Assembly: GCA_029820995.1 (NCBI GenBank)
Contig: JALGUG010000020.1
Location: 1-34,353 of the forward strand
Direction: 5' to 3'
DNA length: 34,353 nucleotides
Source of the DNA: Candidatus Zipacnadia bacterium
GTDB lineage: Bacteria; Armatimonadota; Zipacnadia; JALGUG01
This document shows positions 19,993 to 34,353 of this stretch, one piece after another. Position 1 is the first letter of the stretch, and each line of letters starts with the position of its first letter. Under the pieces are notes generated by a model that saw only the letters and a list, made by a program, of their open reading frames with translations, was not told where the DNA came from and did not search any database. A program made the position numbers and the translations under genes.

Positions 19993-21063
19993 CTAGCGGC
20001 TGTCCAACATCTTGAGGAAGACATCTACGACTCGCGGGTCCCAGTGGCGCCCGCGCCCCTCGCGGAGCAGGTCCCGGGCCACGGTGTCGGGCAGAGCGGG
20101 ACGATAAGCGCGATCGGAGGTCATGGCATCATAGGCGTCGGCAACAGCGATAATCCGCGCCGGGAGGGGGATCTCCTCGCCCTGGAGCCCTTTGGGATAG
20201 CCGCTCCCGTCCCAGCGTTCATGATGGAAGTACACCGAGGGGACAATGGGCGCCAGGCGCTTGACGGGCCGGATGATGTCTCGCGAGGCGACCGGGTGCC
20301 GCCGCAACTCCGCGATCTCCTCTTCGGTTAGCTCGCCCTTCTTGTTCAGCACCTCTTCCCGCACGGCGAACTTGCCCACGTCATGGAGCAGCGCAGCGTG
20401 TTCGAGCAGCTTGATCTCGCGCGATCCGAGGTTGATTCTCTGGGCCACGGCGACGGAGAGGTTGCGGACCGAAGTGCTGTGGTTCTTGAGGTACGGATCG
20501 CGGCTCTCCATCACCCGCACGAGTGTTTCGATGACTTCGACGCTCCCGGCCAGATCGCGAACTTGCCAGCAACGCTCCACAGCTCGGTCAATCGCGGCAA
20601 CGAGGTCCACCGTGCTGAAGGGCTTTACGAGGAAGTCGTACGCTCCCCGCTTCATGAATTCCACGGCGGTCTCCGCGGTCGAGTAGCCCGTAATGATCAT
20701 GACCGTGGGGTCGTCATCCCACAGCGCGCGGGTGTAGTTGAGCACATCGTCGCCGCCCAGGATCGGCATGTTCAGGTCCAATAAAATCAGGTCGAACTGC
20801 CGCTTCTCGATGGCGTCAATGGCTTCCTGACCGTCCGAGGCGCGGGCAATCTGACGTAGCCCGCAGCTCCGAGCAACGTCCTCTAAGAAGTCGGCGACGA
20901 AGAGCTCGTCGTCCACGATGAGTACCGATAGCTCGGACCGGCGCTCGTCCTCGCGCACACTGCGCGCTAACCGAGCGCGCAGCGCGCCGGTGAGGTCCGC
21001 GGTCGGACCCCCCGCGGACGTCGTGCCCGCCATGCTCCACAAGCCTTCACTAGCATCAGGCAT
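19993..21063 (-). CDS. Response regulator with HD-GYP c-di-GMP phosphodiesterase domain
   Basis: The 356-residue protein has a receiver domain (about 45-165) with acidic Asp51/Asp52, phospho-acceptor Asp96 in LILLDLNMP and Lys147 in LVKPF. It is followed by an HD-GYP domain (about 178-355): HAALLHDVGK with His227/Asp228, then HHERWDGSGYPKGLQGEEIP with the GYP triad at 288-290, and RIIAVADAYDAMTSDRAYR. All key residues for hydrolysing cyclic di-GMP appear present, so the enzyme should be active and phosphorylation-controlled. Its ATG overlaps the end of the histidine kinase gene by eight bases, so the two are translationally coupled and very likely cognate. It is the last gene of the long minus-strand string. 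Confidence 0.93.
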   Translation of the reverse strand: MPDASEGLWSMAGTTSAGGPTADLTGALRARLARSVREDERRSELSVLIVDDELFVADFLEDVARSCGLRQIARASDGQEAIDAIEKRQFDLILLDLNMPILGGDDVLNYTRALWDDDPTVMIITGYSTAETAVEFMKRGAYDFLVKPFSTVDLVAAIDRAVERCWQVRDLAGSVEVIETLVRVMESRDPYLKNHSTSVRNLSVAVAQRINLGSREIKLLEHAALLHDVGKFAVREEVLNKKGELTEEEIAELRRHPVASRDIIRPVKRLAPIVPSVYFHHERWDGSGYPKGLQGEEIPLPARIIAVADAYDAMTSDRAYRPALPDTVARDLLREGRGRHWDPRVVDVFLKMLDSR

Positions 21064-24901: not shown

Positions 24902-26821
24902 TCATAGCGCCGAAAACCAGGTCACAAAGGCCGTCCAGCCGAACGTCGCGGCCAGAACGCCGATGACAATAACGAGGCCGATGGCCAGCTTGCCGATGTC
25001 CTGGCCCTTCAGGGTGCCCAGCAGGACCGGCTCGCGCGACAGATAGGCCGAGGCGGCGTAAAGCTCCTCGCCCATCAGCGTGTAGTCGCAGGCCGTGATG
25101 AAGAACGGGAGCTGGGTATCCGCATCGGTCCCCGCGATCTGGATGGACCCCGCGGCAGCGCCCGTCTCGGCCAGAATGAGCGACTCCGCATAGAAATAGC
25201 CCATGTAGAAATTGGTGGCCGGCCGCTCCCGCATCATCAGACCCGACACCGCGGCAACATAGCCGAACTGCGAATCGGTGACGTAGAACACGTTGTCCGG
25301 ATTGTACGCCTCCATCTTCCCGGCGTCCAGGTAGGCTTCGCGGACGATCTCACGCTCGGCGGCCATCACCAGCGCGTCGTTGCAGGGCACGAGCAGCGGC
25401 GTCTCGTATTCGGCCGTGCGCCGGGCGATGCGCCCCAGAATGATCATCGAGGCGATGGTGGAGATATCGCTGACGCCCGTGAGGCCCGAGACGTACAGAA
25501 TCGGGCGTCCCATCTCCGTGGCGCGCCCGATAGCATCGTCCACCGCCTCCAGACCCGCGATGGGCCGCACGTACAGCTCCCGACCGCGCCGGACGAGCGT
25601 CAGGCAAACCAGCACGATCACGCTGAACAGGAGCGACACGGTCAGGACATTGATCCGGTCGGTGTTGAACCACTGGCCCGAAGCTGCAGCCGAGGCTGTG
25701 GGCAGCTTGGCCGCCAGCTCAGCCGGTAGCTCCGGGGGGAGGATCTTCTCGTTGCTCAGGTACGCTCCCGTGACAAAGACCTGGTCCTCACTCGGTGCCA
25801 GGGCTGAGACCTTATAGTGGTACGGCCGCTTGTTCTCCGGAACCTTGTCCGTGATCTCCTGCACTCCGGGGCCCAGCATCAGCGTGTGTGCCTCGTATGG
25901 CCCCTCGCGCTGCTCAGCGCGCCATAGCACGTAGCCGGCTACGGCCTCCCCCGTGCCGTCATCGCCGGCGGACTTCTGCCACGTGAGCTTGATCTGTTTG
26001 CCCTGGTCGTTGGGCGCGTCTTCGGCCGCCAAGCCGGTGGGCTGGGGCAGCTCTGCAGAGCGCCTCAGCTTGACGGCGAGCCGCCGGGACGGGTTGTCTC
26101 TGGCCTCGGCTTCGGCGTGCGCCAGCACGGCCTCCGCACCGGCCACGAGCAGCGGAGCCGGTGCCCCACCTTCCTCCAGGTACTCCGCCTGCTGGAAGAT
26201 CTTTGCCTCAGCCGGCGCAATCGCGCTGACGGCGAACTCGTAGCTCACGTCATTCTCGGGCACCGAGACCACGGCCTGCTCGGCCCCGGGCGGCAGCAGG
26301 CCGCTTGCGGCCTTGTACTGGCCCGGTCCCGGGGGCGAGCGCCAGACTACATACCCGGCAACACGCTCTCCGCTGTCGTCATCGGCCGCCGACTTGTGCC
26401 ACGCCACGGCCACCTTCCCCCCGGCGTCATCGGGCACATCCTGTGCCGTCACGCCGGTAGGCTGAGGCAGGCGCAGTGATTCGGTGAGCGCCACGGAGGG
26501 AGCTATGGCGGGGCCCTTGCAGCCTGTCAGCAGCACCGGGACCAGCAGGAGCAGCGCCAGTACCGCTGCGACGGCTGTCCCTGCGGCGGCGCCGACGGGG
26601 CCTGGAGGGGCCGAGTACCAGTGCGGCTCGGCGGGCCGGGTCGCGTGAAGTATCCGGCCCGCGAAAACCGCAGGGCGATGGGCCGGATAGGGCTGCTGCC
26701 CAACGTCTCGTGTCCGGCCCCTCCGCGCACAGCGTCGCACCAGTACGAGGCCCGCATGATTGCGGGCTTGAACGCGTCCCACCTGCGCGTCAGCGGCGAT
26801 CAAGTCGCTACTCCTCCACAA
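24902..26821 (-). CDS. Fibronectin type III / DUF6754-like membrane protein
   Basis: The frame encodes 639 residues. After an odd hydrophilic N-terminus (1-77) comes a hydrophobic segment ending in LLTGC (Cys101), which looks like a lipoprotein signal or an anchor. Two tandem fibronectin type III repeats follow (about 117-205 and 265-350), each starting LPQPTG and containing AGYVVWRS or AGYVLWRA. A transmembrane helix lies at about 405-425, then a conserved domain of about 200 residues (GRPILYVSGLTGVSDISTI, FYVTDSQFGYVAAV) and a final helix at the C-terminus. The C-terminal part resembles proteins annotated as DUF6754. The ATG at 26821 overlaps the upstream gene by 14 bases; no ATG, GTG or TTG occurs close before the hydrophobic segment, so the true start is unclear. 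It probably forms the scaffold of the membrane cluster. Confidence 0.8.
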   Translation of the reverse strand: MWRSSDLIAADAQVGRVQARNHAGLVLVRRCARRGRTRDVGQQPYPAHRPAVFAGRILHATRPAEPHWYSAPPGPVGAAAGTAVAAVLALLLLVPVLLTGCKGPAIAPSVALTESLRLPQPTGVTAQDVPDDAGGKVAVAWHKSAADDDSGERVAGYVVWRSPPGPGQYKAASGLLPPGAEQAVVSVPENDVSYEFAVSAIAPAEAKIFQQAEYLEEGGAPAPLLVAGAEAVLAHAEAEARDNPSRRLAVKLRRSAELPQPTGLAAEDAPNDQGKQIKLTWQKSAGDDGTGEAVAGYVLWRAEQREGPYEAHTLMLGPGVQEITDKVPENKRPYHYKVSALAPSEDQVFVTGAYLSNEKILPPELPAELAAKLPTASAAASGQWFNTDRINVLTVSLLFSVIVLVCLTLVRRGRELYVRPIAGLEAVDDAIGRATEMGRPILYVSGLTGVSDISTIASMIILGRIARRTAEYETPLLVPCNDALVMAAEREIVREAYLDAGKMEAYNPDNVFYVTDSQFGYVAAVSGLMMRERPATNFYMGYFYAESLILAETGAAAGSIQIAGTDADTQLPFFITACDYTLMGEELYAASAYLSREPVLLGTLKGQDIGKLAIGLVIVIGVLAATFGWTAFVTWFSAL

Positions 26822-27929
26822 GCTCCACGTTGGCTCGCGGAACCGTCACGAGGTCGCCGTTGTCCAGTCGAGCGATGAGCACTCGCACCCGCGCTTCCGT
26901 CTCAATCTCGGTCAGCGCCTCGGGCAGCTCCGCCACCTGGGCGAGCCGGCCGAAATACGGCTCCCGGATGAGACGAACGCGACTGCCCTCCTCGAGCCCG
27001 ATCTCCGCGGCTCGGACCGCTTCCTCCGGCGCCGGGCCGGACCGGGCAACGATCACCTCGGGGCGGATAACGCCGGCCCGAATCTGCGTCTGTCCATTCA
27101 TGGAGGTCCGCCGGCCGGCCAGCGATTTCAACAGGTCGAAGGTGCCCTGCGCCATCGGCACCCGGCCAAAGCCTTCGGTAATCACCAGCGACAGACCCAC
27201 ATCCTCGTGACCGGTGATTGCCACGCCCAGAGGATAGCCCAGGAACGCTTCCAGGTCGTTATAGTCAATCCCTCCCGCGACCACCCCCGCCGCCCCGACT
27301 TCCACTGCGGCCCGCAGGGCGTCCAAGGTAACACACGAGCCGCCCGCGATCACTTTGCCGGCACAAGCTTCGTCCACTTGCCGCGCGGTCAGCTCCTCCT
27401 CAGGTCCGTCGGCGCGAAGCTCGAGCACTCCGTACGTCTCGCCCCCGATGCCGAAGATCCCTTGCAGGAGACTAACTTGCGCTTCGACGATCACGCCCTC
27501 CTCAGGAAGCACCTCAACCACTGTACCGTCAAGGTATGCCCGCAGCTCCACCGGCAGCGCCGGGCCGCGCAAGGCGACCTGGCCGGTCACGTCCGAGATG
27601 CTCTCAACGGTACCGGTGATCGGCGCCTCGCACGTGCTCCGGAACAGGCCCCACAGGCCCTTGGATTCGGCCAGCAGCTCCCCCGCCTCGACCGCATCAC
27701 CCTCCTGCTTGAGCATTAGCTCGGGCACTTCCTCGGGTGTGCAGCCCAGCCGCTGGGCGGCGTTGACGATGGTCACCTGCCCGGGTAGCTCAGTGGAGGC
27801 CACGACCTGTTCCGCGCTTACGGTGTCGCCCGGACGCACATGCACTTCGCCCGCGAGCGGCAGCTTGCGCTCTCTGCGCAGCACCGCGTATTGCGCCACT
27901 CTCAAGCCGGGAGTATAGGCGTGGGCCAT
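26808..27929 (-). CDS. Conserved cytoplasmic protein with RnfC/biotinyl-like N-terminal folds
   Basis: A 373-residue soluble protein. The first half has repeated beta motifs like those of barrel-sandwich hybrid (biotinyl/RnfC N-terminal) domains: LPLAGEVHVRPGDTVSAEQV, then EGDAVEAGELLAESKGLWG, and APITGTVESISDVTGQV. The middle holds VEVGAAGVVAGGIDYNDL and YPLGVAITGHEDVGLSLVIT. The end (VRLIREPYFGRLAQVAELPE) resembles a KOW/SH3-like barrel. I know no established function, though such proteins are seen widely next to MutL-like genes. The ATG at 27929 starts the conserved part; a longer frame begins at 28004 but adds unconserved basic sequence. There is no strong Shine-Dalgarno. A 185-base gap to the mutL-like gene contains a 7-bp hairpin. 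Confidence 0.78.
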   Translation of the reverse strand: MAHAYTPGLRVAQYAVLRRERKLPLAGEVHVRPGDTVSAEQVVASTELPGQVTIVNAAQRLGCTPEEVPELMLKQEGDAVEAGELLAESKGLWGLFRSTCEAPITGTVESISDVTGQVALRGPALPVELRAYLDGTVVEVLPEEGVIVEAQVSLLQGIFGIGGETYGVLELRADGPEEELTARQVDEACAGKVIAGGSCVTLDALRAAVEVGAAGVVAGGIDYNDLEAFLGYPLGVAITGHEDVGLSLVITEGFGRVPMAQGTFDLLKSLAGRRTSMNGQTQIRAGVIRPEVIVARSGPAPEEAVRAAEIGLEEGSRVRLIREPYFGRLAQVAELPEALTEIETEARVRVLIARLDNGDLVTVPRANVELVEE

Positions 27930-27977
27930 TGCTCGGTCACGAGATCCTTTGCGAGTTCTGATCGGGCCGGATGCTTC

Positions 27978-27998
27978 GACTGTCCATAGGCGACAGTC
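27978..27998 (-). promoter_or_regulatory. Hairpin in the gap after the mutL-like gene
   Basis: GACTGTC (27978-27984) and GACAGTC (27992-27998) form a perfect 7-bp stem with a seven-base loop, 48 bases before the ATG at 27929. No T-run follows in the transcribed direction, so it may be an RNA-stability or regulatory element rather than a terminator. Confidence 0.35.
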
Positions 27999-28114
27999 TC
28001 GCATTCAGCCCCTCTTGTCTGTACGAGCGCCTCTAGCGCGACCACGCCCTGTAGGATAACATAGACCGCCTTCAGGCGCGATCGTCGTTGGTCGTTGAGG
28101 TTACGAAACCGCTT

Positions 28115-33311: not shown

Positions 33312-34178
33312 TTACTGCTCGTACATTTCCTTCCCGGTGTCAGTCAGGTCATAGCCGCCGAGAGCCAGCACGGCCTCGCGGAACGCCGGCGAGGCGATGA
33401 TCTCCAGGAGCTGCCGCACTCCGGGGTGGTCCAGGTGTTCCCGCGGCACCGTCAGGTCGTAGCGCTCAGTGGCCACCGGAACGAAGTCCAGTTGCATCGC
33501 GCGTGCAGCAGCGCGGATCCCCAGGCCCACATCCGCCGCGCCACCCGACACGGCCGCCGCCACCATGGTGTGCGTCGTGACCTCGCGCTCGTAACCGGCC
33601 ACTGAACCGGGCTCAATCCCCGCCCGGACCAGCAGGAAGTCCAGCAGAACTCGCGTCCCCGCGCCGCGCTGCCGGTTGATCATCACCAGGTCGGGGCGGG
33701 CTAGGTCCTCGATGGAGCGCAGGCCCTTCGGATTCCCCGGCGGCACGATCAAACCGACCTCGCGATAGGCCAGGTTAATCAGCTTGAGCGGCAGACCGCC
33801 CAGAATTCGGCGGATATACGGAACATTGTACTGCTCACTTTCCGGGTCCAGCAGGTGCGTGCCGGCCAAGTGGGCCTCGCCTTGAGCCAACGCGCGCAGG
33901 CCGCCCATGCTGCCCACGTGAACCGAGGCCACGCGGAAGCCGTCGGGCCGCCGCGCCAGGTCGGAGGCCAGAAGATCGAGCGCGATATCGTGGCTGCCCA
34001 CGACCAGCACCGTGCGCTCAATGTCCGCCGGCGGAACGAGCAGCTCGACCTCCGCCGACGCCCCGGCATTCAGCCCCTCCGCCATGTCGGGCACGACCAG
34101 CAGCCCATCCGCCTGCACGAGCGAGCTGAGCGCGCCGGCCGCTCGCTTCAGCGGCACGGCGACGAGATCGCTGCCCAC
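33312..34178 (-). CDS. C-terminal part of a MoeA-PBP-like fusion
   Basis: The first 48 residues from the GTG at 34178 form the end of MoeA domain IV (VAVPLKRAAGALSSLVQADG then GLNAGASAEVELL). The rest is a periplasmic-binding-protein-like domain (PF12727 type): SHDIALDLLASDLARR, VGSMGGLRALAQGEAHLAGT, YNVPYIRRIL, VGLIVPPGNPKGLRSIEDL, NRQRGAGTRVLLDFLLVRAG and SGGAADVGLGIRAAA. Such domains are commonly fused to MoeA and are thought to sense or bind molybdate or a pterin; this is inference. The same frame continues upstream through 25 more domain IV codons to an in-frame TGA at 34254-34256 and then into normal MoeA sequence. No start codon exists between the TGA and 34178, so the gene appears interrupted, and this start may not be a natural one. 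Confidence 0.75.
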   Translation of the reverse strand: MGSDLVAVPLKRAAGALSSLVQADGLLVVPDMAEGLNAGASAEVELLVPPADIERTVLVVGSHDIALDLLASDLARRPDGFRVASVHVGSMGGLRALAQGEAHLAGTHLLDPESEQYNVPYIRRILGGLPLKLINLAYREVGLIVPPGNPKGLRSIEDLARPDLVMINRQRGAGTRVLLDFLLVRAGIEPGSVAGYEREVTTHTMVAAAVSGGAADVGLGIRAAARAMQLDFVPVATERYDLTVPREHLDHPGVRQLLEIIASPAFREAVLALGGYDLTDTGKEMYEQ

Positions 34179-34253
34179 GCGCCCGACCCGAGCCCTGATG
34201 TACTCGCGTGTCCCCGACTTGGACGGAACCTTGCGGCGAACCGTCGCGCTGAC

Positions 34254-34353
34254 TCATGGCCTCTCGGGGACCGGCAAGCCCTGCAACCGGAAGATGACCG
34301 GCTTCGCCAGGAGATCGAACGCCATCCAGGCCGCGACCGAGTAGCCTGGAACA
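34254..34353 (-). pseudogene. moeA: moeA fragment ending at an in-frame TGA (partial)
   Basis: On the minus strand from the window edge the frame reads VPGYSVAAWMAFDLLAKPVI, then FRLQGLPVPERP, then TGA (34256-34254). This is the end of MoeA domain III (the usual LPGNPVS-type loop and its following helix). The same frame carries on with VSATVRRKVPSKSGTREY, the start of MoeA domain IV. One C-to-T change from CGA (Arg) would create the TGA. MoeA inserts molybdenum into adenylylated molybdopterin. Most of the gene lies outside the window. Confidence 0.65.

What the first reader, a model, noticed from the sequence alone, without database searches (positions are those of the whole stretch)
34178..34353. 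In-frame TGA splits the MoeA-PBP fusion at the domain III/IV border
Reading the minus strand, MoeA sequence continues in one frame on both sides of TGA 34254-34256, with good domain IV sequence after it and no start codon until 34178. Other genes here use TGA as a normal stop (for example at 21056 and 29916), so code reassignment is unlikely. A C-to-T change of an Arg CGA codon would explain it. Alternatives are an assembly error, programmed readthrough, or two separate polypeptides.
Basis: partly seen in the sequence, partly recalled or inferred. Interest (0 to 1): 0.65.

Follow-up and report, generated by a model that had tools for sequence, protein, structure and literature searches.

The report
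Assembly-end variant, not a split gene
The stop codon that seems to cut this molybdenum-cofactor gene in two lies in the last 100 bases of a metagenome contig, and another contig of the same genome that overlaps that end by 328 bases has an ordinary arginine codon there, so the gene is most likely intact and the finding is ordinary.

Summary
The in-frame TGA (34256-34254, minus strand) is really in the sequence, and MoeA-PBP homology runs through it in one frame. But the window is the whole contig C252 of a 481-contig genome bin, so the TGA lies 97 bases from a contig end. Another contig of the bin, C177, ends with the first 410 codons of the same gene. Its last 328 bases overlap the end of C252 without gaps at 321/328 identity, and where C252 has TGA, C177 has AGA (Arg). 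Eight same-class relatives and six other bacteria or archaea have varied sense codons there, never a stop, Cys or Trp. Sampled contig ends of the bin show exact 114-base overlaps, plus one more inexact dovetail (377 bases, 97.6%; 7 of 9 differences synonymous). Neither inexact pair shares an exact run of 114 bases, so a k-mer assembler could not join them. The TGA is therefore one of seven allele or error differences at a strain-variant assembly break. Readthrough, code change and two polypeptides are not supported. Whether a rare strain really carries the nonsense allele cannot be decided without reads.

The parts
34254..34256 (-). In-frame TGA; AGA (Arg) in the overlapping contig C177 of the same bin
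34026..34353 (-). Contig-end overlap with the last 328 bases of C177 (39800-40127), 321/328 identical, no gaps; the seven differences are at 34329, 34256, 34239, 34212, 34141, 34137, 34136
33312..34353 (-). C-terminal part of a MoeA-PBP fusion gene (PRK14498), cut at its 5' side by the contig end; normal stop TAA
34038..34247 (-). MoeA domain IV (PF03454)
33396..33965 (-). PBP-like domain (PF12727)
   Evidence: residues 130-319

Best explanation
The TGA is a local difference at the tip of a metagenome contig, not a property of the gene. The gene is an ordinary MoeA-PBP fusion of about 647 codons that the assembler left in two contigs, because alleles or reads differ at seven positions close together. 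C177 has the sense codon AGA (Arg) at this place and C252 has TGA. Shown: the dovetail overlap, AGA with an unbroken frame on C177, and the same kind of break elsewhere in the bin. Inferred: that the two contig ends are one locus, and that the TGA is either an error in a thin contig tip or a minor-strain variant.
For: Window = whole contig C252, TGA 97 bases from its end. C177's last 328 bases overlap it, 321/328, ungapped and reaching both termini, with AGA at the TGA. C177 gives 410 codons and C252 the rest, about 647 in all, as in relatives (mostly 641-650 aa open frames). In two relatives moeA is followed directly by the unbroken fusion on one contig. Sense codons at this position in 14 relatives. 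Among 237 contig ends of the bin, seven pairs overlap by exactly 114 identical bases and two overlap inexactly, this one and C2/C5; the longest exact runs in those two are 110 and 105 bases, too short to be joined. In C2/C5 7 of 9 differences are synonymous, as in true strain variants. Bin contamination estimate 5.27%.
Against: No reads were available, so coverage and allele frequency at the TGA are unknown. Four of the seven differences here are synonymous, P about 0.10 under random change, which does not separate error from strain variation. Two near-identical separate loci are not formally excluded.
Confidence: 0.93

Rival explanations
1. A true nonsense allele carried by a minor strain: some cells make a MoeA cut before domain IV, or none, and rely on the neighbouring plain moeA. 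This is one of the two ways in which the best explanation can hold, so its probability overlaps with it.
For: Four of seven differences are synonymous and Ser/Gly at one of them varies among relatives, so C252's tip may be a real haplotype. A second complete moeA lies just upstream on C177.
Against: A nonsense change and a loss of a mostly conserved Gly among seven differences also fits errors in a thin tip; AGA is the other assembled allele.
Confidence: 0.3
2. Two separate near-identical moeA-PBP loci, one of them a pseudogene with the TGA.
For: The two contigs do differ at seven positions.
Against: The similarity stops exactly at both contig termini in dovetail orientation, each contig holds the half that the other lacks, and only these two matches exist in the bin.
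Confidence: 0.03
3. Programmed readthrough or selenocysteine insertion at the TGA.
For: The bin has a tRNA-Sec gene.
Against: AGA in the overlapping contig; varied sense codons and no Cys in relatives; the 60 bases from the TGA fold no better than shuffles, z 0.37.
Confidence: 0.01
4. TGA is reassigned to an amino acid in this organism.
For: None found.
Against: TGA follows a complete C-terminal domain in the kinase gene ending at 21056; the only tRNA with anticodon TCA seen is tRNA-Sec, and the tRNA-Trp seen has CCA (not a full tRNA scan of the bin).
Confidence: 0.005

Closest known systems
MoeA-PBP fusion (NCBIfam NF011068 / PRK14498; 'MoeA1' of Archaea and some bacterial phyla, PMC11733289)
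   Same: Same domain order, MoeA followed by a C-terminal PBP-like domain; same length as the family model (647) when both contigs are counted.
   Different: Only the C252 contig tip has an in-frame TGA; relatives and C177 do not.
Strain-variant or low-coverage contig ends in short-read metagenome assemblies
   Same: Ungapped, inexact (about 98%) end overlap with no exact shared run as long as the assembler's 114-base overlap; strain heterogeneity is reported to hamper contiguity (PMC10926707).
   Different: One of the differences happens to make a stop codon.

Membership tests
MoeA-PBP fusion (PRK14498) | MoeA domain IV followed by a PBP-like domain in one frame | tested here: met
   PF03454 at residues 36-105 and PF12727 at 130-319 of P0001, no stop between them
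MoeA-PBP fusion (PRK14498) | Full-length model match over the curated cut-off (534 bits) | tested here: inconclusive
   The two contig pieces score 376.6 bits (model 306-646) and 429.3 bits (model 2-412), each below the cut-off because each is partial; the homologue in L041 scores 709.7
Stop-codon recoding (Sec or readthrough) | Stop conserved, or Cys/Sec in homologues at the same place, with a hairpin just downstream | tested here: not met
   AGA in C177; S, T, R, E, Q, K, V, I in relatives; no fold beyond chance
Strain-variant assembly break | Another contig of the bin overlaps the end in dovetail orientation with small differences and no exact shared run as long as the assembler's overlap | tested here: met
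   328-base overlap, longest exact run 110; normal exact overlaps are 114
Strain-variant assembly break | Reads show two alleles or low coverage at the position | not testable with these tools
   No reads are held

The most novel reading that the evidence does not exclude
A strain in the population truly carries the nonsense codon between MoeA domains III and IV and makes a separate domain IV-PBP polypeptide (from GTG 34178 or another start) that still works, with the neighbouring moeA supplying the rest.
Probability: 0.03. Interest if true: 0.25.

Novelty: not a real feature. Interest (0 to 1): 0.05.

Why it matters
It removes a false case of a split or recoded MoeA, and shows that a stop codon close to a metagenome contig end should first be checked against the other contig ends of the same bin. 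The intact fusion beside a second moeA is a known arrangement; the fusion has been proposed to serve tungsten cofactor synthesis (PMC11733289).

Tried and rejected
Selenocysteine or readthrough: tRNA-Sec is present, but the sister codon is AGA. Code reassignment. CGA-to-TGA transition: the sister codon is AGA. Telling pure error from pure strain variation by codon effect: 4 of 7 synonymous, P about 0.10, not decisive. The other ends of C252 and C177 have no overlap partner in the bin. In the gene-order script the plain moeA of C177 was translated in a wrong frame, so its rows there are unsafe; the gene order rests on the fusion rows and on the paralogous moeA matches.

Full report
Observation. 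On the minus strand from 34352 the MoeA-PBP frame runs to the TAA at 33312 with a single stop inside, TGA 34256-34254. The first possible start after it in that frame is GTG 34178. Domain IV (PF03454) begins three residues after the TGA, and the NCBIfam model PRK14498 (MoeA-PBP) aligns straight across it.

The window is all of contig C252 (34,353 bases) of a bin of 5.55 Mb in 481 contigs, estimated 95.24% complete and 5.27% contaminated. The TGA therefore lies 97 bases from a contig end. In the relatives search no genome closer than the same class was given; the two best matches (70-74% identity) are MAGs titled Armatimonadetes.

The sister contig. A search of the bin for domain IV found two more copies, both on contig C177 (40,127 bases): a complete moeA, and a second moeA that runs into the end of the contig. 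The last 328 bases of C177 equal the end of C252 in 321 positions without gaps. The seven differences are at window positions 34329, 34256, 34239, 34212, 34141, 34137 and 34136. Four are synonymous, two change residues (Gly/Ala and Ser/Gly, C177/C252), and one is AGA (Arg) on C177 against TGA on C252. C177 carries 410 codons of the fusion and C252 the rest, about 647 in all; open frames of most full-length relatives are 641-650. In two relatives moeA is followed directly by the unbroken fusion on one contig, the order that C177 plus C252 gives.

Relatives. At this codon eight same-class relatives and six more distant bacteria or archaea have TCG, ACG, CGG, GAA, CAA, AGG, ACC, AAG, GTC or ATA. 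The position is variable and is never a stop, Cys or Trp.

Why the contigs break there. I compared 237 ends of 122 contigs of the bin. Seven pairs share exactly 114 identical bases at their ends, the mark of a k-mer assembler (inference). Two pairs overlap inexactly in the same dovetail orientation: C177/C252 (328 bases, 97.9%) and C2/C5 (377 bases, 97.6%). The longest exact runs within them are 110 and 105 bases, so a 114-base overlap could not join either pair. In C2/C5 seven of nine differences are synonymous in the open frame, as expected of true strain variants. The same kind of break accounts for C177/C252. Strain heterogeneity as a cause of poor contiguity is documented (PMC10926707).

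What stays open. Whether the TGA is an error in a thin contig tip or a rare true allele cannot be told: 4 of 7 synonymous has P about 0.10 under random change, and no reads are held. Either way the other assembled version of the locus is unbroken.

Other readings. TGA is a normal stop here, for example after the complete HATPase domain of the kinase that ends at 21056. The bin has a tRNA-Sec gene, but AGA in the sister contig, the relatives' codons and the absence of a hairpin beyond chance speak against selenocysteine or readthrough. Two polypeptides are not needed.

Comparison with the known. The gene is a MoeA-PBP fusion, described for archaeal MoeA1 and a few bacterial phyla and proposed to serve tungsten cofactor synthesis (PMC11733289). 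The TGA is not a feature of that family nor, as far as can be shown, of this genome's main allele. Interest is low.

Noticed in passing
G000:C395:47514-47608 (L031): The bin has a tRNA-Sec gene (Rfam 76.2 bits, ARAGORN anticodon TCA), so this organism probably makes selenoproteins; they were not looked for.
   Followed up: partly
G000:C2:1-377 and G000:C5:1-377: A second inexact contig-end overlap, 97.6% over 377 bases, 7 of 9 differences synonymous: the bin mixes strain alleles at contig ends.
   Followed up: yes
G000:C177:38406-40127 with window 33312-34353: MoeA-PBP is reported to co-occur with the tungsten-uptake protein TupA in 86% of cases (PMC11733289), but the only PBP_like_2 (PF12849) match in this bin is the fusion's own PBP domain, below the cut-off. 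The bin is incomplete.
   Followed up: partly
window 24902-28004: A 639-aa protein with DUF6754 next to a 398-aa protein with only a marginal biotin/lipoyl match, beside a MutL-type (PF13941) gene; the cluster was not studied.
   Followed up: no
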